This document shows, one piece after another, positions 501-40,970 of a stretch of DNA of 54,725 nt. The stretch is from a virus. Positions within the stretch are counted from its first letter, which is position 1, and each line of letters begins with the position of its first letter. The notes under the pieces are model-generated. The model was not told the origin of the DNA. It made no database searches and saw only the letters and a program-made list of their open reading frames with translations. Made by a program: the position numbers and the translations under genes. The stretch lies in IMG/VR virus record IMGVR_UViG_3300027728_000016, positions 1 through 54,725 of that record; one strand, given 5' to 3'.

Positions 501-941
501 TTATGCCCTTGCCGTCTTTAGGATGCTTCTAAGCATCCATACTTTTTTAGAATATAAGTCTTGTAAATCCGCCATGTAGTTAGCTATCCCTTGCTCTCGG
601 GTTTCAGTAGCAACGTCAAATATAGTTTTCACTAATTCAACCATATCAGATGAATCACTCAACAATTCTTCAAACATCAAAGCCGCTCGCGGTATTTTAT
701 GTTGTTCCCGTACTATACTAAGTTCCAATAGGCGAGACAGGTTACCTGGAGTATAGGAATCTAGTGAGCGTATATGCTCACCCACCGTGTCGATTGATTC
801 ATATACCTCTGAATAGAATGAGCCTAGAAACTCATGGTATTGTGGGAAATCACTACCTTCAACATTGAAATGGAAACCGTGTATCTTAGTGTACAAGACA
901 AACGTGCTTCCTAACAATGTTTTTAAGTCATCTACTAACAT
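501..941 (-). CDS. dps: Dps/ferritin-like DNA-protection protein
   Basis: 146 residues, slightly short of bacterial Dps. Dps proteins form dodecamers that oxidise and store iron and shield DNA. The ferroxidase spacing is visible: H24, H36 (+12), D51 (+15 from H36) and E55 match H51, H63, D78 and E82 of E. coli Dps. The position equivalent to E. coli D67 (H36+4) is Gly40, so iron oxidation may be altered. The rest is four-helix-bundle-like. The ATG follows AAGGA, and a late-type promoter lies at 960-967. It is the first gene of a minus-strand unit running to the window edge. A role in protecting phage or host DNA from oxidation is inference. Confidence 0.8.
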   Translation of the reverse strand: MLVDDLKTLLGSTFVLYTKIHGFHFNVEGSDFPQYHEFLGSFYSEVYESIDTVGEHIRSLDSYTPGNLSRLLELSIVREQHKIPRAALMFEELLSDSSDMVELVKTIFDVATETREQGIANYMADLQDLYSKKVWMLRSILKTARA

Positions 942-12795: not shown

Positions 12796-13413
12796 TTAGG
12801 ATGATTTCTTTTCTAATTTGTAGGTTTTACCAATGACATTGGGAAACATCAGATGAATGTAGGTTAACATAGCTGGGTCGTTATAATCAATATAGTAATG
12901 ATCATAAATCCAAATGTATTTGTATCCCCAACTGCTTAGGGGATACAAACATCGAAGAAAAGGATGATTCGGGCGTAACCCATCAGTTCGTTCTAGATAT
13001 TCTACAAACGCTGGCCTAAACTCAGCTTCTACCCTTTTTGTCTTAAGATAGGACCTAAACTTAGCAGGAGGAGTATTCTTAAATAGTTTTACGCCATGTG
13101 TCACAATAGCTTCAGTTATGGGGCCGGCATTAGCCAGTAATTGAAATTGCTCAACCAGTGCTAAATCGTTGCTAAAGAAGGTGATACGGTCCCCTTCTAG
13201 CCTGAACTTATTATTCTCTCGATGCAAAGCAAGGAATATACTGATTTTTTCCCGATCAGTATATGATGTTGTATGCATCTCTGGCAGACTGATGAGGTTT
13301 CCCAGCTGTATACTTTCTTGACCTCTGGGTGTCCGTACACTAACTCTATACTTAAATTTATTGTAGTAAAGGATAGTCCGATCTTCAGCTTTGAATTTCA
13401 ATGATGCCGTCAT
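12796..13413 (-). CDS. Unrecognised conserved-looking protein overlapping the clpA 3' end
   Basis: 205 residues from the ATG at 13413 (AAGGA seven bases upstream), overlapping the ClpA C-terminal coding end by 29 nt; a further upstream ATG at 13464 is less likely. It reads TILYYNKFKYRVSV near the start and ends in a Tyr/Trp-rich region YKYIWIYDHYYIDY. It is basic, mixed alpha/beta, with no motif I can name. The overlap means it is expressed with the second half of clpA. Confidence 0.55.
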   Translation of the reverse strand: MTASLKFKAEDRTILYYNKFKYRVSVRTPRGQESIQLGNLISLPEMHTTSYTDREKISIFLALHRENNKFRLEGDRITFFSNDLALVEQFQLLANAGPITEAIVTHGVKLFKNTPPAKFRSYLKTKRVEAEFRPAFVEYLERTDGLRPNHPFLRCLYPLSSWGYKYIWIYDHYYIDYNDPAMLTYIHLMFPNVIGKTYKLEKKSS

Positions 13414-14593
13414 GGCCAATCCTTGCGTTTTGCTTTTGAGTAATTTGGAAAACAATCTCGTCATTTTCTAAAACTGCCATGATACTTGAATTCGCAATGC
13501 GCTCAAAGAGAATCTTCTTTGAGAGGGGAACGCGAATCAGTTCATCGATCTTGCGAGCGAGCGGGCGGGCTCCCATCTTACTATCGTATCCTTTAGCAGC
13601 TAGGTAGTCAACTACCGATTCGCTCAAATTAAGAGTGATATTGTGCTTTTCGAGCAAGGGCTTCTTGACCTCGTCGAGGAACTTGATAACGATCTTCTTG
13701 ATAGCAAGCGTATCCAACTTGTTGAACTTACAAATCATATCAAGACGATTGCGGAACTCAGGTTTGAAGAACTGCTTGAGTGCTTTCTCGTCTTCATCGG
13801 TTTTTTCTAACATACCGAAGCCAATGTTATTACGCTCATTGTCTGCTGAACCAAGATTAGAGGTCATAATAATAATAGTGTTCTTGCATGAGACTTCCTT
13901 ACCGTTAGAACCGGTGATGCGTCCCTCATCCAAAATCTGCAAGAAGATGTTGAAGATATCGGGGTGAGCCTTTTCAACTTCGTCGAATAGCATAATCGAA
14001 TGAGGGTTCTTGCTCAAGTCTGAAATCAAACGTCCACCCTGCACCTGTGAATCGCTGAAGCCTACATATCCCGGGGGAGGACCAATCAAGCCACTTACGC
14101 TGTGCTTCTCTCCGTATTCCGACATGTCATACTTGAGAAGCGGCATCTCCAAATTCTTAGAGAGCAGCTTAGCAAGCTCAGTATTATGATGAATAAAACC
14201 ATTTGAAGTTTGATACAGGTGAGAATCCGATACTACACTAAGATCATAAAATAACGTATCGTCAATTGGAACAACATCCAGAACAGAAACCTCGGACCCA
14301 TTTTGCTTGCAAATTATATCTCCAGTCTGCAATGAATCAAAATACAGACATTCCTCACCATCGTGAATTAGGTGTTTATCGGCAGCAGAAATCGTGTCTC
14401 CTGAATCAAAGGTTATTTTTCTACCCGTAGTTTCTTTGGTAATAGCAGCATTCACTTCTACCCAATTGTCATTCTCATCTTTGATTTGAATTTCGGAGTT
14501 TAAAAATTGCTCATGTTCAGGTACGAATGTGGTCTTTTCATAAAGACTAATGAGGTTGAAGAGTTTTGCGATAGGTAGAGTGATTTCTTTCAT
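13385..14593 (-). CDS. clpA: C-intein fused to ClpA C-terminal half (D2 AAA+ domain)
   Basis: 402 residues. Residues 1-137 are the C-terminal part of a split intein; 138-402 are ClpA. The ClpA part starts with Thr138 of the D2 Walker A motif, then has GPPPGYVGF, Walker B LFDEVEKAH (202-210), sensor TSN, an IGF tripeptide (257-259) aligned with the ClpP-docking IGL loop of ClpA, FRNRLD and YDSKMGARPL. It cannot bind ATP at D2 until spliced to the upstream half. Own SD (AAAGGGA) and a possible promoter at 14637-14665, so it can be made separately. Joined to the N-half it gives 755 residues against 758 in E. coli ClpA. An unspliced, non-functional remnant is unlikely because all motifs are intact. 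Confidence 0.9.
   Translation of the reverse strand: MKEITLPIAKLFNLISLYEKTTFVPEHEQFLNSEIQIKDENDNWVEVNAAITKETTGRKITFDSGDTISAADKHLIHDGEECLYFDSLQTGDIICKQNGSEVSVLDVVPIDDTLFYDLSVVSDSHLYQTSNGFIHHNTELAKLLSKNLEMPLLKYDMSEYGEKHSVSGLIGPPPGYVGFSDSQVQGGRLISDLSKNPHSIMLFDEVEKAHPDIFNIFLQILDEGRITGSNGKEVSCKNTIIIMTSNLGSADNERNNIGFGMLEKTDEDEKALKQFFKPEFRNRLDMICKFNKLDTLAIKKIVIKFLDEVKKPLLEKHNITLNLSESVVDYLAAKGYDSKMGARPLARKIDELIRVPLSKKILFERIANSSIMAVLENDEIVFQITQKQNARIGHDGIIEIQS
14183..14593 (-). other. C-intein, 137 residues (atypically split intein)
   Basis: Block B region ITFDSGDTISAADKH contains the His (73) used in step one; the usual TxxH is here AxxH. Block F reads FYDLSVVSDSHLYQTSNGF and the end is HHN, followed by extein Thr. 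The pattern FDxGxxIxxxxxH and the C-terminal block resemble the atypical TerL split inteins (short N-part, long C-part) known from metagenomes. Asn137 cyclisation and Thr+1 give a complete splicing centre with Cys1 of the N-intein. Confidence 0.9.
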
Positions 14594-14636
14594 ATAATTC
14601 CCTTTGTGTTAGTGACAGTGTATTTAATATAATACT

Positions 14637-14665
14637 ATAATACTGTGTTTTTCATAAAAAGTAAA
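14637..14665 (-). promoter_or_regulatory. Possible sigma-70-type promoter for the C-half of clpA
   Basis: TTTACT, 17 nt, TATTAT on the minus strand, 43 nt before the ATG at 14593. A late-like ATTAAATA overlaps downstream at 14621-14628. Weak -35, so only moderate support. Confidence 0.4.
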
Positions 14666-14692
14666 GCTGTTTGTTGATTTTCTTGCCCAAAT

Positions 14693-14700
14693 GATAAATA
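14693..14700 (+). promoter_or_regulatory. T4-type late promoter (GATAAATA) for the Vsr-like endonuclease
   Basis: Plus-strand GATAAATAA. The predicted start at 14706 is the A of the Shine-Dalgarno AGGAG, giving a 14-nt leader before the ATG at 14720. Confidence 0.6.
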
Positions 14701-14719
14701 AACATAGGAGCAACATGTT

Positions 14720-15802
14720 ATGGCAAGACGTTTAGAAACAAGACTCGAAGGCAGCAAGCCCTTTAAGGACAGAATCGGAAGACCATTAATTTCCGTTGAA
14801 ATTGAAAGATTATATGAATTTCATCATAGAGTAGGCTACACTCCGGACAGGATACATGCGATAGTCCAATTTATTTTATTAGGATACGATGATTGGAGTA
14901 GTATTTGGAATAAATTAAAGACCTTGCACAACGGTACATTAGAATACCAAACTCTACTTTACGGAGATGTTATGGGCAAAACCAAATATTTGGAACTTAA
15001 CAAGAAAAAAACTAAAGGATTTGACCATTCGTCTGATGCTCAAAGAGAGAAGGGAAAAAAATCAGCCAAGCTATCAAAAGGAAATAAAGAATGGAGTGTG
15101 CGCGGGTTGGGGTATTGGATCAAAAAAGGATACACAAAAGACGAATCATTAGAGAAAGTGAAGGCAATACAAATAACTAATTGCTTAGATAGATACATAA
15201 AAAAATACGGTATTGATGAGGGGACCCAAAAGTTTAATGATAGGAAGAATACTTGGAAAAAAACGATGAACTCTTCGATTATTGGCAAAAAAAGAAGTCT
15301 GGGACTATGGAGATACGTAGAAAGATACGGTGAAGCTGAAGGAGAGAAAAAATATATCGAAATGCGTATTAAAAGAAATTCTAAATGCAGTATAGGAAGA
15401 GCGTCTGCCGAGTCGCTAGATGCACTTTCCCCAATCATACGTATCTTAGATCAAAATGGTATTAATTACTATATAGGAATAGAAGGAAATAAAGAATGGT
15501 TCATATTCAATAAAAAAGAAAAAAAGATGTTTTTCTATGATTTAACTATACCTTCATTGGGGATAATAGTAGAATATCACGGTGAGGGATTTCATCCTAA
15601 TCCAAACTGGGAAGAGAAGATGCTAACTGAGTGGAGACAAGTTAGAACAGGAAAAGGCGCTAAAGAAGTGATGGACTATACTAAAATGAAAAATCTTACT
15701 GCAATAGAAAACAGATGGACCGTATTTGAAATCTTCTCGTCAGAGGTTTCAAATACGGTCCCCAGGATAAAAGACGTTATACTGAAATCAATCCGTTCTT
15801 AA
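14720..15802 (+). CDS. Vsr-like (EDxHD-type) homing endonuclease in the clpA fracture
   Basis: 360 residues on the strand opposite to clpA, filling the gap between its halves. The C-terminal nuclease region reads FFYDLTIPSLGIIVEYHGEG then FHPNP, with D274, E285 and H291; this matches the Vsr/PD-(D/E)xK-related EDxHD family first described beside split inteins in metagenomic phage genes. The middle carries two copies of a Y-G-x-x-E-G-x-x-K-[YF] module (RYIKKYGIDEGTQKF and RYVERYGEAEGEKKY), probable DNA-binding units. The ATG follows AGGAG. Its last 26 nt overlap the N-half of clpA convergently. It presumably cuts uninterrupted clpA alleles. Confidence 0.85.
   Translation: MARRLETRLEGSKPFKDRIGRPLISVEIERLYEFHHRVGYTPDRIHAIVQFILLGYDDWSSIWNKLKTLHNGTLEYQTLLYGDVMGKTKYLELNKKKTKGFDHSSDAQREKGKKSAKLSKGNKEWSVRGLGYWIKKGYTKDESLEKVKAIQITNCLDRYIKKYGIDEGTQKFNDRKNTWKKTMNSSIIGKKRSLGLWRYVERYGEAEGEKKYIEMRIKRNSKCSIGRASAESLDALSPIIRILDQNGINYYIGIEGNKEWFIFNKKEKKMFFYDLTIPSLGIIVEYHGEGFHPNPNWEEKMLTEWRQVRTGKGAKEVMDYTKMKNLTAIENRWTVFEIFSSEVSNTVPRIKDVILKSIRS
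15717..15761. repeat. Perfect 15-bp inverted repeat inside the endonuclease gene
   Basis: Arms 15717-15731 (ggaccgtatttgaaa) and 15747-15761 are exact complements separated by 15 nt. It codes for the endonuclease C-terminus on the plus strand and lies 15 nt past the stop of the clpA N-half on the minus strand, where it would form a stable 3' hairpin without a U-tract. Confidence 0.85.
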
Positions 15803-17333
15803 CAGCAAAATTGTACATATCATCGGTAATTTTTACAGTAACTTCTTGCTCACCCGCCAAACACTTACCCGTACCTGTAGGTCCCAAGAACAAGAAACTT
15901 GCGATGGGCTTCTTATCATTGCCGATACCAGCGAATGATACATAAACCCGTTCAAGAACTTTATCTACTGTCTCGTCTTGACCATAAAGCTTATCCTTGA
16001 CGTTTGTGTCAAGCTGATGAATACGATCAAGGTTGTCGCCGGACATTTTGTCCGCAGGGACCCCAGTAAACTTTTCAACTTGATCATAGATCAACTGTTT
16101 GGTGATGACTGCATTCTTGTTTTCAAGCACCCGCTGCTTTGCACAAGCTGCATCTAGCAAGTCAATCGACTTGTCGGGGTTCTTGCGGTCGTGAATATAA
16201 CGATCTGCACTTTCGACTGCTGCTTCGATTGCCTCTTCGCTAATACTAACGTTATGGAAATCATTCAGACGGGTAGAAAGTCCACGCAGGATTCGAACAG
16301 TAGAATCATGTGAAGGTTCATCGATAGAAACACGATAGAATCGGCGCATCAACGCTCGATCCTTTTCGAATGATTCGTAGTATTCTTCCCAAGTCGTAGA
16401 TGCGATTACCTTAAGGTTGCCCTTAGTGATAGCGGGCTTGATCATGTTAGAAAAGTCAACAGCTCCAGAAGTCGAGCCGCCGGCACCCTGCATAGTATGT
16501 GCTTCGTCGATGAATAGAATAGCCTTCTTCTTGACAGTAAGTGCCTGCAGTACGTGCTTTACCTTTTCTTCGAAGTCACCTCGATATTTAGATCCAGCAA
16601 GCAACGTGCCGATTTCAAGCGAGTAAAGTTCATGGTCTAGCAAGAAGTCTGGAACTTCTTCATTGACGATTGCATTTGCGATACCCTCAGCGATAGCAGT
16701 CTTCCCGACGCCAGGGTCTCCCACCATCAATACGTTAGCTTTGAATCGCTTTGCCAAAACGTTGATGATGTCATCGATCTCTTTAGTGCGACCGATCACT
16801 GGTTCTAGTTTTTCATTTCGTGCAAGCTGAGTTAGATTGATAGTATATTCGTCAAGAATCTCGTCAGCCTGGACATCACTGATGCCGCTAGCATACTCGC
16901 CGCCGCGATAGTTCTTTTGCCAATGAGCGAGAAACTCTGCCTTACCGATGCCGTACTTGAGCAGGAAGTAATGTCCATGCGAATTGCCTTCACTAGCGAT
17001 ACTCATGAACAGATCAATCGTAGCCATCTGTCGGCGGCCAGTGAACAAGACCTGAGTAACAGAACGGTTCATGACGCGTTCGAGTGTATTAGTACGCTTT
17101 GGCTGGCTGGCTGGGTCTTTAGATTCAATCGCGTGCAGGCCGTTAAGATACGCTTCGACTTCAGTGATTAGCATATCTGTGTCGGCATTAAAGCTGTTCA
17201 AACACTTCCTAAAAGGAGAGTGAGTAATCAATGCAAGAAGCAAATGTTCTACTGTGCAATATTCATGGTTGCGTTGCTTAGCAGCTTCAATTGCTCGTTC
17301 AATGATATTTTCAATTTCGGGCGAGGTCTGAAT
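15777..17333 (-). CDS. clpA: ClpA N-terminal half (N-domain, D1, start of D2) fused to N-intein; ATT start
   Basis: 518 residues if started at ATT 17333-17331. No ATG, GTG or TTG precedes TTG 17243 in frame, but the upstream codons read IENIIERAIEAAKQRNHEY then TVEHLLLALI, which match the ClpA N-terminus; AAAGGA lies 8 nt before the ATT. Then come Clp_N repeats, D1 Walker A GDPGVGKT (205-212), Walker B LFIDEAHT (273-280), and LFLGPTGTGK (481-490), the first part of D2 Walker A. Residues 491-518 are the N-intein. Role: ATP-driven unfolding of proteins, probably feeding host ClpP. Late-type promoter at 17355-17362. It must splice with the 14593 product to work. Confidence 0.9.
   Translation of the reverse strand: MQTSPEIENIIERAIEAAKQRNHEYCTVEHLLLALITHSPFRKCLNSFNADTDMLITEVEAYLNGLHAIESKDPASQPKRTNTLERVMNRSVTQVLFTGRRQMATIDLFMSIASEGNSHGHYFLLKYGIGKAEFLAHWQKNYRGGEYASGISDVQADEILDEYTINLTQLARNEKLEPVIGRTKEIDDIINVLAKRFKANVLMVGDPGVGKTAIAEGIANAIVNEEVPDFLLDHELYSLEIGTLLAGSKYRGDFEEKVKHVLQALTVKKKAILFIDEAHTMQGAGGSTSGAVDFSNMIKPAITKGNLKVIASTTWEEYYESFEKDRALMRRFYRVSIDEPSHDSTVRILRGLSTRLNDFHNVSISEEAIEAAVESADRYIHDRKNPDKSIDLLDAACAKQRVLENKNAVITKQLIYDQVEKFTGVPADKMSGDNLDRIHQLDTNVKDKLYGQDETVDKVLERVYVSFAGIGNDKKPIASFLFLGPTGTGKCLAGEQEVTVKITDDMYNFAVKNGLISV
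15780..15863 (-). other. N-intein, 28 residues
   Basis: Starts CLAGEQEVTVKI (block A: Cys1, Leu2, Gly4) directly after GPTGTGK and ends NGLISV at the stop. Typical split N-inteins are around 100 residues; only the atypical TerL-type ones are about 25. The remaining splicing blocks are all on the C-intein. Confidence 0.9.
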
Positions 17334-17353: not shown

Positions 17354-18157
17354 CTATTTATTTTTACTACGATTGATACTATCAATTATATCATTGTCTA
17401 TATTATCAGGGATGTATGGCTTGATCAATAGTATTTGGTCACCCATCGTGCCATCACGAGAGGGCATACCATAACCAGGTACCCTAATAACCTGAGCAGG
17501 TTGTGTATTGGGTTTAATTACAACCTCTATTGTTTTTCCATTAATGGTTTGAATTGGAACTTTAGCGCCCACAATCAAGTCTAGTACAGAGATAGTCAGT
17601 TGCGAATATAGATCACTGCCTTTCCGTTCATATCTATGATCAGGAGTGATGGCGAACTCAACAATTAGTGTTACATTGTTGATGATATTATCATAGCGCA
17701 TCGTGTCACCGTTGTCAACACCAGGAGGAATTTTTATGTTGATGACTTTCACCCCTTGGGGGGTACTAAGCTGTATTATACTCTCGGTTCCAGTATATGC
17801 ATCAACCAATGATACACCAAGACGAGTGCGCATCACTTGTTGCTGCTGTGCGAATGGGTTAGGTCTGTTTCCAAAAATCTGTCCGAACAAATTTTCTAGA
17901 TCAAACGCATTACCATATACTGAGAATTCTTCTCCCCCACTACCGAATGGATTATGTTGCTGTCTAGATTGAGGGCTGTCGTATCGTAAACGCTTATCGG
18001 TATCACTTAATATTTCGTATGCATTACTGATTTCTTGAAACTTATTAATGTCGCCGCCGCGATCAGGATGATGCTGCATCGCAAGTTTACGAAATGCACT
18101 TTTAATTTCTTCCTGAGTAGCGGTGCGAGATACCCCGAGAGTAGTGTAATGATCCAT
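17354..18157 (-). CDS. dnaJ: DnaJ/CbpA-type co-chaperone
   Basis: 267 residues. The J domain (1-65) has the HPD motif at 30-32, needed to stimulate DnaK. A Gly/Phe/Asn/Gln-rich linker (66-105) follows, then the two beta-sandwich substrate-binding domains (106-255) with TRLGVSLVDAYTGTE and IKIPPGVDNGDTMRY. There is no zinc-finger domain, so it is CbpA-like. Promoter TTGACA-17-TATTAT ends 6 nt before the ATG, predicting a leaderless mRNA. It lies just upstream of the clpA N-half, so a host-DnaK/ClpA remodelling pair is suggested. Confidence 0.9.
   Translation of the reverse strand: MDHYTTLGVSRTATQEEIKSAFRKLAMQHHPDRGGDINKFQEISNAYEILSDTDKRLRYDSPQSRQQHNPFGSGGEEFSVYGNAFDLENLFGQIFGNRPNPFAQQQQVMRTRLGVSLVDAYTGTESIIQLSTPQGVKVINIKIPPGVDNGDTMRYDNIINNVTLIVEFAITPDHRYERKGSDLYSQLTISVLDLIVGAKVPIQTINGKTIEVVIKPNTQPAQVIRVPGYGMPSRDGTMGDQILLIKPYIPDNIDNDIIDSINRSKNK
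17355..17362 (-). promoter_or_regulatory. T4-type late promoter (AATAAATA) for clpA N-half
   Basis: Minus-strand AATAAATAG overlapping the dnaJ stop; predicted start at 17349, giving a short leader with AAAGGA before the ATT start. Confidence 0.5.
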
Positions 18158-20047: not shown

Positions 20048-20821
20048 GTGACCAAACGCAAAACTAGCGCATTGAGACAAAAAGATACTAAATCACACAG
20101 ATATGGAGCCGAAAGTAAACCACTTGACACTAGAGAATCAAAAACCATCGACTTTAATCAAACCCTGCCCCGTAGGGCCAAAAAGCCCATCGAATTAATA
20201 CCTCAGAGTATAAATCAGGAAAAATACATCATCGCATTGACCGACCCTGAAACCGATATCGTTATGGTCAGTGGTCCTGCGGGAACAGGCAAGACATATC
20301 TAGCAATGCTAGCTGCTATAAAAGCCATGAGACAAGGAGATTGCGAAAAAATACTGTTGACCAGACCTGCTGTTGCGGTTGACGATGAGAAGCACGGGTT
20401 CTTGCCCGGCGACTTAAATGACAAGATGGAACCCTGGGTCAGGCCTTTGTTCGACGTACTAAGAGAGTTCTATACTACAAAGGAACTCGATTATATGGTC
20501 GAAGAACAAGTAATTGAAGTTACCCCACTCGCCTTCTGTAGAGGGCGCAACTTTAAACATTGTTATATTATTTTAGACGAAGGACAGAATGCAACACCCA
20601 ACCAGATGAAAATGCTAATGACTAGAATTGGTGAGGGCAGTAAGATAGTCATTACTGGTGATGTAGAGCAAACTGATCGTAGAACAACCGATAATGGGTT
20701 ATTAGACTTAAAAAATAGGATTCAGCAACACAATGTCCCGGGCTTCTCAGCCTGTGAATTTGATACACGAGATATTAGGAGACATAAAATCATTGAACAT
20801 GTTTTGGAACTGTACTCTTAA
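20048..20821 (+). CDS. phoH: PhoH-like P-loop ATPase
   Basis: 257 residues on the plus strand. The start is GTG at 20048, with AGGAG seven bases upstream. Walker A GPAGTGKT (76-83), Walker B YIILDEGQN (173-181) and the TRPAV and QTDRR motifs match PhoH, an RNA-helicase-like ATPase very common in marine phages. The first 45 residues are a basic tail. An imperfect hairpin (TGAGAG/CTCTCA, 20002-20023) precedes the ribosome-binding site. It runs alone between divergent and convergent minus-strand genes and ends in a shared terminator. Its exact role in infection is unknown. Confidence 0.92.
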   Translation: MTKRKTSALRQKDTKSHRYGAESKPLDTRESKTIDFNQTLPRRAKKPIELIPQSINQEKYIIALTDPETDIVMVSGPAGTGKTYLAMLAAIKAMRQGDCEKILLTRPAVAVDDEKHGFLPGDLNDKMEPWVRPLFDVLREFYTTKELDYMVEEQVIEVTPLAFCRGRNFKHCYIILDEGQNATPNQMKMLMTRIGEGSKIVITGDVEQTDRRTTDNGLLDLKNRIQQHNVPGFSACEFDTRDIRRHKIIEHVLELYS

Positions 20822-21547: not shown

Positions 21548-22477
21548 TCAGCTAGAACAAAGCTCTGCTAACGAGGCCGCGACGGATATTTCCGGGATAC
21601 CCACTAGTGGCAAGTTAGCTAATCCATTACGAATAATGATGATTGCTGCGTCTTTTTGTTCAGGTGACTTCCCCCACAGATCAAGATTGTCATATAACCA
21701 GCGATATGTATCTTCAACCCTAGAAGGATACAATGAGATATATTGCATAATTTGTTGACGACCTTCAAGAATCTTACCAGTCTTGAACAGATTAGTGGCG
21801 GCGATGAGAATCTCATCTTCACTGTTTCCGATAGACTGGGGTGCCTTCAATGTACCGGACTTAGAATTGTTCTGCAATTGATTGAGACACTTACGCAAAT
21901 CTGGATATGCAGCACGAACGTATGTGTCGAGAGTATCTAGCTCAAAATCTACGTTCTCAGCAACCAATACTGTTGCTGCACGAGCGGTAAACTCATTCAG
22001 ATCGGGCTTTGCGAGGTGAAACTTGAAACAACGAGATTCACGCAATGCAGGAATGATCTTGTGTTCATAGTTACAAGTCAGAATGAATCTAACTGACGAA
22101 GCGTATGCTTCCATATCGTTACGCAACGCAGCTTGGAACGCCGGAGTCGTATAGTCAGCTTCATCCAGTAACACGACTTTAAACTTGCCGAATGGCATTG
22201 TTTGAGCAAAGTTGTTAATCTTATCCTTGACGATATCAACCCCGTTCTCGCGTGACGCATTGATCTCAAGGACATCATACTCTTCGATCCCCAGTTCGTG
22301 AATAAGAACTTTAGCAAGTGTAGTCTTGCCAGTACCTGGATCTCCTGACAGTAAAAGATGAGGAATAGAGCCTTCTTCTATCCAACTCAATACCTGTTCT
22401 CGCTGACGATCATCTACGAACACGTAGTCATCGACTGAGTTCGGGCGATAGCGTTCAACCCAAAGGATGTTTTTCAT
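21548..22477 (-). CDS. 44: Sliding-clamp loader large subunit (gp44, RFC/AAA+)
   Basis: 309 residues. It starts ILWVERYRPNSVDDYV, as in gp44/RFC small subunits. Walker A SGDPGTGKT (44-52), Walker B VVLLDEAD (101-108) and an ESR arginine-finger-like motif (SRC box) are intact. It loads the gp45 clamp onto DNA together with gp62 (probably the 48408 gene). Promoter TTGACT-16-TATAAT lies 30 nt upstream. A 14-codon frame begins at an ATG 7 nt after the -10 box and overlaps the gp44 start out of frame, a possible control. Confidence 0.93.
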   Translation of the reverse strand: MKNILWVERYRPNSVDDYVFVDDRQREQVLSWIEEGSIPHLLLSGDPGTGKTTLAKVLIHELGIEEYDVLEINASRENGVDIVKDKINNFAQTMPFGKFKVVLLDEADYTTPAFQAALRNDMEAYASSVRFILTCNYEHKIIPALRESRCFKFHLAKPDLNEFTARAATVLVAENVDFELDTLDTYVRAAYPDLRKCLNQLQNNSKSGTLKAPQSIGNSEDEILIAATNLFKTGKILEGRQQIMQYISLYPSRVEDTYRWLYDNLDLWGKSPEQKDAAIIIIRNGLANLPLVGIPEISVAASLAELCSS

Positions 22478-22771: not shown

Positions 22772-23137
22772 CTAATACTCTTTGTCTGTCATCGTATAAT
22801 CGTTGACGTATTCTTCACTTACTAATAAAATGTCATTGGGGTCTACCTTACGGATTACTTTCTCGCCTTCGTCGTCTTCGATGGTCTGACCACGACTCCA
22901 GCGACCGTGTGCTATCATAATATAATCGCCTACTTTAACATCTTGTACGTCTGGGCCAACAGCATATACCTGGGCCCAACGGGGACGGATACCTGCACTT
23001 TTCATATCATCATCGAGAAGAATAAGTCCTCCCCTACTGATACGTTCTCTAAACTCCATGCCGCACACTAAAATAGTGTTTTTGATTGGATGTAGCTTAC
23101 GTAATTTAGTTCTAGTTATGTTAACTTTTTCAGCCAT
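22772..23137 (-). CDS. 31: GroES-like co-chaperonin (gp31-like)
   Basis: 121 residues, longer than GroES (97). The GroES fold is visible: LHPIKNTILVCGMEF at the start, a mobile loop RISRGGLILLDDD matching GGIVL of GroES, then AQVYAVGPD and VKVGDYIMIAHGRWSRG. It would cap host GroEL with a larger cavity so that capsid protein can fold, as gp31 does in T4. It lies 2 nt downstream of the 23553 gene. With dnaJ and clpA it makes a phage chaperone set. Confidence 0.85.
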   Translation of the reverse strand: MAEKVNITRTKLRKLHPIKNTILVCGMEFRERISRGGLILLDDDMKSAGIRPRWAQVYAVGPDVQDVKVGDYIMIAHGRWSRGQTIEDDEGEKVIRKVDPNDILLVSEEYVNDYTMTDKEY

Positions 23138-23598: not shown

Positions 23599-24105
23599 TT
23601 ATTTTAAAAATTCGTTGACATCTAATTGATAAAATAAAGAATTGATTTTATGAACCCCGATGAGGAAAAGCACAAAACTTGCTACGCTGGACCCGCGACC
23701 CACGCCCCATACTAAGTTATTGGCTCTCATCGTATCTACGAGATACTTTAAGTAACGAAGAAGCATAAACATATCTCGTTCTTGATAAAGAAGCAATTCT
23801 TCGCCTGCACGTTGTAACTCTGCTTCAGTTGAACACTGATCTAACACGAATTTAGCGATATCGAAGTTTTTATAATCATCAGGAATGAACCAATTTAATT
23901 GCTTTTCTTGATCAAAGTCAGTGATAGACTGGTCGCTCGTCAGGTACTGAATCATTTCAGGGGTGTTTTTCAAGTTTAATCTTGTATCGAAATGTATTGG
24001 TTCGGATACGAACACTCGCTTTAGCGTAATATTTGGATCAGTCATGTACATGTCGAGTAGTTCATGTTCAGAGTAAATAAATTGTCCAAATTTATCTGTA
24101 ATCAT
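23599..24105 (-). CDS. Split DnaE-like polymerase, part A (segment before the catalytic Asp pair)
   Basis: 168 residues from the ATG at 24105; an upstream ATG at 24120 overlaps the -10 box and is rejected. The C-terminal 55 residues follow bacterial DnaE: ERDMFMLLRYLKYLVDTMRA then NNLVWGVGRGSSVASFVLF, LIGVHKINSLFYQLDVNEFL. This equals VGPGRGSGAGSLVAYALKI...LLFERFLN of E. coli Pol III alpha. The protein stops exactly where DnaE continues into PDFDVDF. The 45237 gene starts at that point (MRIDSDVDID). Alone it has no catalytic residues. Promoter TTGACA-17-TATTAT ends 6 nt before the ATG. Confidence 0.75.
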   Translation of the reverse strand: MITDKFGQFIYSEHELLDMYMTDPNITLKRVFVSEPIHFDTRLNLKNTPEMIQYLTSDQSITDFDQEKQLNWFIPDDYKNFDIAKFVLDQCSTEAELQRAGEELLLYQERDMFMLLRYLKYLVDTMRANNLVWGVGRGSSVASFVLFLIGVHKINSLFYQLDVNEFLK

Positions 24106-24111
24106 ATAGTA

Positions 24112-24140
24112 ATAATACATGATTTACCGCAAATTGTCAA
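24112..24140 (-). promoter_or_regulatory. Sigma-70-type promoter of DnaE-like part A, leaderless
   Basis: TTGACA (24135-24140), 17 nt, TATTAT (24112-24117), 6 nt, ATG 24105. It overlaps the earlier ATG at 24120, which therefore is not on the transcript. Confidence 0.75.
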
Positions 24141-39569: not shown

Positions 39570-40970
39570 TCATTTCTTAAGGGAATTCAATAGAGATTTT
39601 AATTTTGCGCTTTGAATGTCAGGAACTACTCGTTTTTCTTCAATAGATGGGTGTGATATATCTATGCTCGTCCCGACACTGCTAGTATTCTTGATCTGAC
39701 TCATGATCTGGCTTGCACTAGGCTGTGGCTTGCTATCACCTTCTGGGTCTTCATCAGTAATACGCATAGTTTCAATGTTATATTCTAAGTCAATCTTTTG
39801 ACCTACACCAGTCGAACTACGAGATTTCATACACTGTATCTGGTATTTACCGCGTTCGCGCATCGAGCGTGAAGTAAAGATACCAAACACATTATCAGCA
39901 GTATTGATCTTTGAGATACCACCTGCGATGTGACTATGATCAAACTCGATCTCTTCGACCGCCGAACGATTCAACTGTGACGCAGTTACCATGAGAACAC
40001 CTAGTTCTTTCGCTAGGTTTCTAAGTTCTTCCGAGACATACTTATCTTTGATAAACTGATCGTTTGGATTGACTTTCACTGAGACTGGCATGACAAGATC
40101 AAGATAATCGATCATCACGAAGTCTACTTTGATACCGGTCTGAATCTGAACTTCTTTGAGATAGCTACGAATGTCGTTTACTGTGCTTTGTGCAGGCATA
40201 CCCTTAACACGATATTTACCAGACTTCTTGCCCATCATCACGACCTTCAAGCCAGTCGTTTCAATGTCCTTGCGAATGTCTCTTGTACTCATGCTGGTTA
40301 ACATCGCATCTGTGCGCAACGAAGTTAATTCTTCTGATAGTTCGAGACTAACATACACTCCACTGAGGCCTCGCTGTAGCCAGTTTAAAGCGATGTTCAT
40401 CATGACAAGTGACTTACCAGAACCAGAACCACCCGCAAAGATGTTCAACTCGCCGCGACTAAATCCACCGTACAACAGGCGATCCATCTGAGGCCAACCA
40501 GTACTGACTTGTCCACCTGCGTTGAAATACTTATGGATACGCTGTTTAGGATCAGCAAAGTAATCAGTACCCATATCCCTCTGGAGGCTGATCTGAACCG
40601 CGTCTTTAATCAGTTTCTCGACTGGATCGAATTCTCCCTTCTCAAGCATGTCGGCTGCTTTGAGGATAGCTCGTTCAAGCTCTTGGCGTTTTGTGAATGA
40701 TTCAAATTCTTCCAAGAACCAATCGTAGTGCCCCTCATCTAGTTCAGGGATAGTATCGATAGTTGTTCCGGTCGTTGCTTTGATCTGCAAGGGATCAGGC
40801 ATCACGCTATACTTTGTAGAATGTTCTACTATGAATTCTGCAACGGGCCGAAGCGTACGATCAAAATTTGCTGGATTCATGATATTCATAACACGAGTGT
40901 ATAGGTCTGCATTTGTAACCATCATTCTTAAGAATAGTTCTTGCACGTCTGCGTTAAAGTTTTTTATCAT
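39570..40970 (-). CDS. 41: Replicative DNA helicase (gp41, DnaB-like)
   Basis: 466 residues. It is a hexameric 5'-3' helicase with a RecA-type core: Walker A GGSGSGKS (180-187), DFVMIDYLDL Walker B, the QLNRSAVE motif (H3) and KSRSSTGVG arginine finger region. The N-terminal 140 residues are the DnaB-type helical collar. It works with the primase, the next upstream gene, with which it overlaps by 17 nt. No intein, although this gene is a known intein host. A low-complexity C-terminal tail is normal for gp41. Confidence 0.95.
   Translation of the reverse strand: MIKNFNADVQELFLRMMVTNADLYTRVMNIMNPANFDRTLRPVAEFIVEHSTKYSVMPDPLQIKATTGTTIDTIPELDEGHYDWFLEEFESFTKRQELERAILKAADMLEKGEFDPVEKLIKDAVQISLQRDMGTDYFADPKQRIHKYFNAGGQVSTGWPQMDRLLYGGFSRGELNIFAGGSGSGKSLVMMNIALNWLQRGLSGVYVSLELSEELTSLRTDAMLTSMSTRDIRKDIETTGLKVVMMGKKSGKYRVKGMPAQSTVNDIRSYLKEVQIQTGIKVDFVMIDYLDLVMPVSVKVNPNDQFIKDKYVSEELRNLAKELGVLMVTASQLNRSAVEEIEFDHSHIAGGISKINTADNVFGIFTSRSMRERGKYQIQCMKSRSSTGVGQKIDLEYNIETMRITDEDPEGDSKPQPSASQIMSQIKNTSSVGTSIDISHPSIEEKRVVPDIQSAKLKSLLNSLKK

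What the first reader, a model, noticed from the sequence alone, without database searches (positions are those of the whole stretch)
14183..15863. Intein sits between Lys and Thr of the D2 Walker A, and is of the rare short-N type
The N-extein ends GPTGTGK and the C-extein begins TELAKLL, so splicing rebuilds GPTGTGKT with its essential Thr. Thr is also the +1 nucleophile. The N-intein has only 28 residues (Cys1 onward), while blocks B to F are on the C-intein (His73, HHN end). This resembles the AceL-TerL class, where the N-part is about 25 residues. Block B has AxxH rather than TxxH.
Basis: partly seen in the sequence, partly recalled or inferred. Interest (0 to 1): 0.88.

Follow-up and report, generated by a model that had tools for sequence, protein, structure and literature searches.

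The report
Split intein breaking a phage ClpA
A phage chaperone-ATPase gene is broken in two at its ATP-binding loop by a self-joining split protein intron with a DNA-cutting-enzyme gene wedged inside it; this is one of a sizeable viral family, and a related phage has its ClpA broken into three pieces by two such elements.

Summary
In this uncultivated phage, clpA is interrupted at exactly 14183-15863 (1681 bp) between Lys and Thr of the D2 Walker A motif by a class-1 split intein (28 + 137 residues) with an antisense endonuclease gene between its halves. 79 of the 80 closest clpA genes in IMG/VR lack the insert, including a 97%-identical protein on a contig that is 92% identical over 10 kb. 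The AceL-TerL comparison is only half right. The N-part has a similar length, but the split site differs. Sequence, AlphaFold models and structural registration place the break before strand b3/helix a1, as in VidaL and PolB16 (S1). AceL/GOS-TerL split after a1 (S2). The 28 residues are a 12-residue core plus an extra conserved helix, kept in a contiguous relative. A motif scan found 45 loci: a P-loop intein family in phage Clp (D1 and D2), clamp loader, RadA and DnaB. In the clamp loader, near-identical inteins occur contiguous and split. One relative has ClpS and a ClpA in three pieces, with split inteins in both Walker A motifs. Fractured genes and S1 splits are already known. The ClpA site, the three-piece gene and the contiguous/split pairs appear new. 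Splicing is inferred, not shown.

The parts
15864..17243 (-). N-extein: ClpA N-terminal part, D1 ATPase and D2 up to GPTGTGK
15864..15884 (-). first seven residues (GPTGTGK) of the D2 Walker A motif
15780..15863 (-). IntN, 28 aa: Cys1 + b1-b2 core (1-12) and extra helix a0 tail (13-28); stop TAA 15777-15779
15717..15761 (.). inverted repeat (18-nt arms, 94% complementary, 9-nt loop) 16 nt beyond the IntN stop, inside the 3' end of the endonuclease gene; z -5.2
14720..15802 (+). 360-aa Vsr-like free-standing homing endonuclease candidate, antisense to clpA; overlaps the IntN 3' end by 26 bp
14594..14719 (.). divergent intergenic region between the endonuclease and C-piece starts; ribosome-binding-like AAAGGG upstream of the C-piece ATG (by eye) and weak promoter-like matches
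14183..14593 (-). IntC, 137 aa: b3-a1 (1-19), block B with His74 (AADKH), blocks F/G HLYQTSNGFIHHN ending Asn137
14180..14182 (-). Thr+1: splicing nucleophile and the Walker A threonine of D2
13385..14182 (-). C-extein: rest of D2 and D2-small domain, with an IGF-like ClpP-contact loop (NNIGFGM, by eye)
14183..15863 (.). whole mobile insert, 1681 bp, absent from 79 of the 80 closest clpA genes

Best explanation
A mobile fractured-gene element sits in a phage clpA. The gene is expressed as two proteins. The N-piece ends in a 28-residue IntN; the C-piece starts with a 137-residue IntC. IntN supplies strands b1-b2 with Cys1 and packs into the nearly complete Hint fold of IntC. Class-1 trans-splicing follows: N-S shift at Cys1, transfer to Thr+1, Asn137 cyclisation aided by His136, and final acyl shift to the peptide bond. 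This rebuilds GPTGTGKT and so the D2 ATPase. The split is at S1 (before b3-a1), as in VidaL and PolB16, with an added conserved helix a0 on IntN. The Vsr-like endonuclease between the halves most likely spreads the whole insert by cutting intein-free clpA. Shown: the anatomy, the intact reading frames, the empty-site alleles, the fold prediction and the split register. Inferred: splicing, the order of steps and the endonuclease's target.
For: Exact insertion between the Lys and Thr codons, with an intact allele on a co-linear contig. All catalytic residues kept: Cys1, His74, His136, Asn137, Thr+1; F12, K53, H74, D117, H125, Y127, T129, N131, G132, H136, N137, T138 are invariant in 27 IntCs. 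Profile hits to solved inteins: CatC 9e-10, gp41-1 6e-7, VidaL 4e-6. IntC model pLDDT 95.8, Z 16.1, rmsd 2.2 over 136 residues with the P. horikoshii RadA intein, and Z 14.9, rmsd 2.0 over 121 residues with VidaL. Contiguous homologue L018: pLDDT 96.4, helix a0 at 19-25, b3 34-38, a1 39-45; best Foldseek hit VidaL, E 3.7e-7. L022 is the same intein (86% identical to L018) but split, in the loop after a0. Same plan (IntN, antisense endonuclease, IntC) in L025, L031, L038 and at D1 in L033/L049.
Against: No experiment. IntN and IntC of the window could not be co-folded with the tools. In the window IntC model, b3 is not assigned as a strand without IntN. Endonuclease activity and target are untested; no solved structure matched it. 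Copy L002/L014 with 100% identity may be the same sample, so support from an independent assembly comes from the diverged relatives.
Confidence: 0.88

Rival explanations
1. It is an AceL/GOS-TerL (S2) type intein, split after helix a1.
For: Similar IntN length (28 against 25-37 aa) and best sequence hit CatC.
Against: IntC carries b3-a1. The structural register starts at VidaL residue 20 and PolB16 residue 16, while CatC covers only window residues 22-138. Contiguous L018 places a0, not a1, before the break.
Confidence: 0.06
2. Decayed or non-splicing insertion: clpA is a pseudogene, or the two pieces work as a non-covalent ATPase.
For: No activity data; the phage could rely on host Clp proteins.
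Against: Both exteins are intact and nearly identical to the uninterrupted allele. All splicing residues are conserved, and Walker A is restored only by splicing. Ten distinct Clp split inteins keep the same plan.
Confidence: 0.06
3. The interruption is an assembly or sequencing artefact.
For: Single uncultivated contig; the near-identical copy may share the sample.
Against: Diverged homologues with the same arrangement come from other metagenomes (L019, L025, L031, L038, L048; IntC 53-59% identical), and long antisense ORFs are conserved.
Confidence: 0.01

Closest known systems
VidaL split intein (PDB 6vgv; IntN 16 aa)
   Same: S1 split site (IntC starts with b3-a1); best full-length structural match of the contiguous relative; AxxH-like block B (CAFNH); SH/HN C-terminus
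   Different: IntN lacks the a0 helix tail; about 19% identity; a different host gene (from memory)
PolB16 OarG split intein (PDB 8cpn; IntN 15 aa)
   Same: same S1 start of IntC
   Different: Ser1/Ser+1 and cysteine-independent, block-B His dispensable, 168-aa IntC (PMC10189870); the window intein is Cys1/Thr+1
AceL-TerL, GOS-TerL and consensus Cat (PDB 6dsl)
   Same: short IntN, Hint fold, best sequence-profile hit
   Different: split S2, after helix a1 (PMC13014065); Cys+1 (PMC11766414); the window is split S1
Fractured genes (Dassa et al. 2009; cited, paper not held)
   Same: gene cut by a split intein with a free-standing endonuclease gene between the halves
   Different: the known set, as remembered, has mostly canonical splits; here an S1 split, a Walker A site and an antisense endonuclease
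Inteins after the Walker A lysine: MCM-a and VMA-b (PMC10643990)
   Same: identical insertion position, K|T
   Different: those are contiguous archaeal inteins; these are viral and mostly split
Contiguous TerL intein of Ackermannviridae (142 phage records)
   Same: Walker A K|T site, 33% identity over 83% of IntC
   Different: contiguous mini-intein without an endonuclease inside it, in terminase

Membership tests
Class 1 intein | Cys/Ser1, block-B His, penultimate His, C-terminal Asn, Cys/Ser/Thr+1 | tested here: met
   Cys1, His74, His136, Asn137, Thr+1
Class 1 intein | Hint horseshoe fold | tested here: met
   IntC model pLDDT 95.8, Z up to 16 with solved inteins; contiguous homologue pLDDT 96.4
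Class 1 intein | protein splicing activity | not testable with these tools
   needs expression of both pieces
S1-type atypically split intein (VidaL, PolB16) | break after b2, IntC begins with b3-a1 | tested here: met
   register to VidaL 20 and PolB16 16; L018/L022 pair
S1-type atypically split intein (VidaL, PolB16) | IntN of about 15-16 aa (length seen in the two known members, perhaps not defining) | tested here: not met
   28 aa; the 12-aa core carries an extra conserved helix
S2-type atypically split intein (AceL, GOS-TerL) | IntN includes helix a1 | tested here: not met
   a1 lies in IntC residues 8-19; CatC aligns only from residue 22
Fractured gene (Dassa 2009) | two gene pieces with a split intein and an endonuclease ORF between | tested here: met
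Fractured gene (Dassa 2009) | endonuclease of the Vsr-like EDxHD family | tested here: inconclusive
   invariant D274, E285, G288, H292 in 15 relatives; hits to phage proteins annotated VSR endonuclease; weak PF18741 hits in four relatives, none in the window protein, no PDB match
Mobile intein | sporadic presence with intact empty-site alleles | tested here: met
   79 of 80 closest clpA genes uninterrupted

The most novel reading that the evidence does not exclude
The relative L003 (IMGVR_UViG_3300033146_007470) makes ClpA as three proteins, through two homologous split inteins placed in the D1 and D2 Walker A motifs. If the two pairs are orthogonal, this is a natural tandem trans-splicing system; if not, the middle piece (IntC-extein-IntN) could circularise or be skipped. 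More widely, the a0-b3 loop is a recurrent point where P-loop inteins switch between contiguous and split, and a0 is a dedicated docking element of a distinct S1 subclass.
Probability: 0.45. Interest if true: 0.75.

Novelty: new variant of a known kind. Interest (0 to 1): 0.62.

Why it matters
Characterised natural short-N split inteins are few. Here is a viral family with about 20 distinct split members, several with IntN under 30 aa, in four kinds of P-loop ATPase. Contiguous and split versions of nearly the same intein (L018/L022, 86% identical) make the origin of split inteins directly testable. The three-piece ClpA poses a natural orthogonality test. Short synthesizable IntNs with a Cys1/Thr+1 junction inside a conserved GK|T motif are also of use for protein ligation.

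Tried and rejected
AceL-like S2 classification: rejected on structural register. Generic annotation: Pfam, NCBIfam and Rfam gave no accepted intein or RNA family for the window pieces, so profile and fold evidence was needed. A mixed-family profile (A1) was too diverse for a collection scan, and the A2 scan found only known loci; the C-terminal DNA motif worked. Cellular origin: the same motif in about 85,000 bacterial and archaeal species gave only two unrelated inteins, both in one MAG. Plasmids: no match. Endonuclease against the PDB: nothing significant. Hairpin as an intrinsic terminator: no U tract, so not claimed. T4-type late promoters: TATAAATA is not enriched in the window (2 against 5.3 expected), so that control is not claimed here. 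ClpP was not found on the window contig, which may be incomplete. Clp D2 inteins as one clade: the best tree does not show it, but the data do not reject it (p-AU 0.38).

Full report
What is there. The window is an uncultivated virus record of 54,725 bases. On the minus strand a phage Clp ATPase (phrog_4871, 'ATP-dependent protease') is encoded by two ORFs. The upstream piece (15777-17243) holds the N-domain, the whole of D1 and D2 as far as GPTGTGK, then CLAGEQEVTVKITDDMYNFAVKNGLISV and a stop. The downstream piece (13385-14593) starts MKEITLPI..., runs 137 residues to FIHHN, and continues TELAKLL with the rest of D2. Between them, on the plus strand, lies a 360-aa ORF (14720-15802) that overlaps the 3' end of the first piece by 26 bp.

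It is an insertion, and the coordinates are exact. Of the 80 closest clpA genes in IMG/VR (75-100% amino-acid identity), 79 read GPTGTGKTELAKLL, or the same with one or two substitutions after the Thr, without a break; the one with Cys after Lys is the 100%-identical copy of this phage. Locus L066 (97% protein identity) is an empty-site allele on a contig 92.3% identical over 10.3 kb. The insert is 1681 bp, between the Lys and Thr codons, at 14183-15863. No intein is found on the L066 contig.

It is an intein. Profiles built from the C-part and relatives find solved inteins, best CatC (E 9e-10), then gp41-1 and VidaL. The C-part alone is modelled at pLDDT 95.8 and superposes on solved inteins at Z up to 16, rmsd about 2 over 121-136 residues. 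Class-1 residues are all present: Cys1, His74, His136, Asn137, Thr+1.

Where it is split. Published natural short-N inteins are split at S1 (after b2: VidaL, PolB16) or S2 (after a1: AceL, GOS-TerL) (PMC13014065). The window C-part contains b3-a1. Its first residue lies on VidaL residue 20 and PolB16 residue 16, whereas CatC (S2) begins at window residue 22. Independent support comes from relatives. L018 has the same kind of intein in one piece, modelled at pLDDT 96.4: strand 7-12, helix a0 19-25, strand b3 34-38, helix a1 39-45. Its best solved match is VidaL. L022 carries nearly the same intein (86% identical over IntC) broken in the loop after a0, by a stop and a gap without an endonuclease gene. 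So the 28-residue IntN is a 12-residue core plus the a0 helix, not an AceL-like N-part. In six Clp D2 IntNs the core has 57% and the tail 46% mean pairwise identity. L019, which has no endonuclease gene, still keeps the tail, so overlap with that gene is not the only reason for it.

The family. A scan of IMG/VR for HxYxTxNG[hydrophobic][hydrophobic]xHNT gave 45 stretches, parsed. Nearly all are P-loop inteins (GK|C...HN|T): Clp D2 (8 distinct), Clp D1 (2), clamp loader (many), RadA (3), DnaB (1). Four long contigs (L035, L039, L042, L062) are large inteins of another kind. The same motif is almost absent from about 85,000 cellular species. On a tree, inteins group by gene (4 label changes, the minimum), Clp apart from the rest with 100/100 support. 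The contiguous state needs three separate changes within the clamp-loader group.

Three-piece ClpA. L003 encodes ClpS (E 2.4e-27), then ClpA as an N-piece (236 aa), a middle piece (451 aa, IntC at its start and IntN at its end) and a C-piece (395 aa), split in both the D1 and D2 Walker A motifs, each gap holding an antisense Vsr-like endonuclease gene. The D1 endonuclease gene is broken into two ORFs. L033 has only the D1 intein on its contig, with a 680-aa open frame after it.

The endonuclease. Relatives in other fractured loci share invariant D274, E285, G288 and H292. Hits include phage proteins annotated VSR endonuclease. Pfam support is weak, and only for relatives. I call it Vsr-like and leave EDxHD membership open. 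In Clp loci it is mostly antisense and overlaps the IntN end by a few to 26 bp; L026 has it on the sense strand. L019, L022, L040 and L045 have no endonuclease ORF in the gap; L056 keeps a fragment and L023 a broken one.

A recurring hairpin. A strong inverted repeat follows the IntN stop at about +10 to +60 nt in the window (15717-15761, z -5.2) and in about ten of fourteen split loci. Seven have perfect stems of 11 or more pairs, against 2% of random 70-nt segments. L033 and L049 show a compensatory change. In same-strand loci (L028, L044, L059) the loop holds TATAAATA or a near match, and in L028 and L044 the 3' arm covers the endonuclease's ribosome-binding site, as described for T4 homing endonucleases (PMC2988022). 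In the antisense Clp loci its role is unknown.

Mechanism and status. Most likely the two pieces are made separately, associate through IntN docking, and trans-splice to restore the D2 Walker A motif; the endonuclease spreads the insert to intein-free clpA. Anatomy, empty sites, fold and split register are shown here. Splicing, cleavage and the effect on the phage are inferred. Known: fractured genes, S1 splits, and inteins after the Walker A lysine (MCM-a, VMA-b; PMC10643990). I found no report of inteins in phage ClpA, of a natural three-piece ClpA, or of this contiguous/split pair. The literature held is partial: Dassa 2009 and the VidaL papers could not be read.

Noticed in passing
L003 1459-7173: clpS followed by clpA in three pieces, with split inteins in both Walker A motifs; the D1 endonuclease gene is frameshifted and shares sequence with the D2 one.
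   Followed up: partly
L018 6223-6702 and L022 2452-3079: Near-identical clamp-loader inteins, one contiguous and one split with only a short endonuclease-free gap: a before/after pair for gene fracture or re-fusion.
   Followed up: partly
window 15717-15761; also L033, L049, L003, L038, L019, L026, L044, L059, L054, L028: Hairpin just beyond the IntN stop codon; in same-strand loci it holds a T4-late-promoter-like loop and (L028, L044) covers the endonuclease's ribosome-binding site. Function in antisense loci unexplained.
   Followed up: partly
L005 1962-5601, L006 2901-6582: Terminase large subunit of large phages fractured at Walker A (CRQIGK|C...HN|T) with a same-strand Vsr-like endonuclease gene between the halves and a longer N-intein.
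   Followed up: no
L016 1102-3216, L017 1394-3361 (Vibrio phage vB_VmeM-32): TerL C-piece starting with an IntC and carrying a second, contiguous intein; UvsX also split, with a GIY-YIG endonuclease gene between its pieces.
   Followed up: no
L048 8615-9418(-): The Clp D2 gap here holds an unrelated endonuclease that looks GIY-YIG by eye (no Pfam hit), suggesting the same gap is invaded by different endonuclease families.
   Followed up: no
L038 record (327 kb phage): Seven intein-like matches in one phage genome.
   Followed up: no
window 21548-22477 and 39570-40970: Clamp loader and DnaB-like helicase of the same phage are free of inteins, although their homologues elsewhere carry them at the P-loop.
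   Followed up: partly
window 23599-24120(-): Stand-alone 173-aa protein matching only the start of the DNA polymerase III alpha NTPase domain; no intein-like end seen.
   Followed up: partly
window 501-941, 17354-18157, 20048-20821, 22772-23137: Ferritin-like, DnaJ, PhoH and Cpn10-like genes: a chaperone-rich phage with dnaJ directly upstream of clpA.
   Followed up: no
CAKLQH020000043.1 (L145): Record named Acinetobacter phage MD-2021a carries argC, clpS, clpA, aroF and bioH and looks like bacterial chromosome.
   Followed up: no
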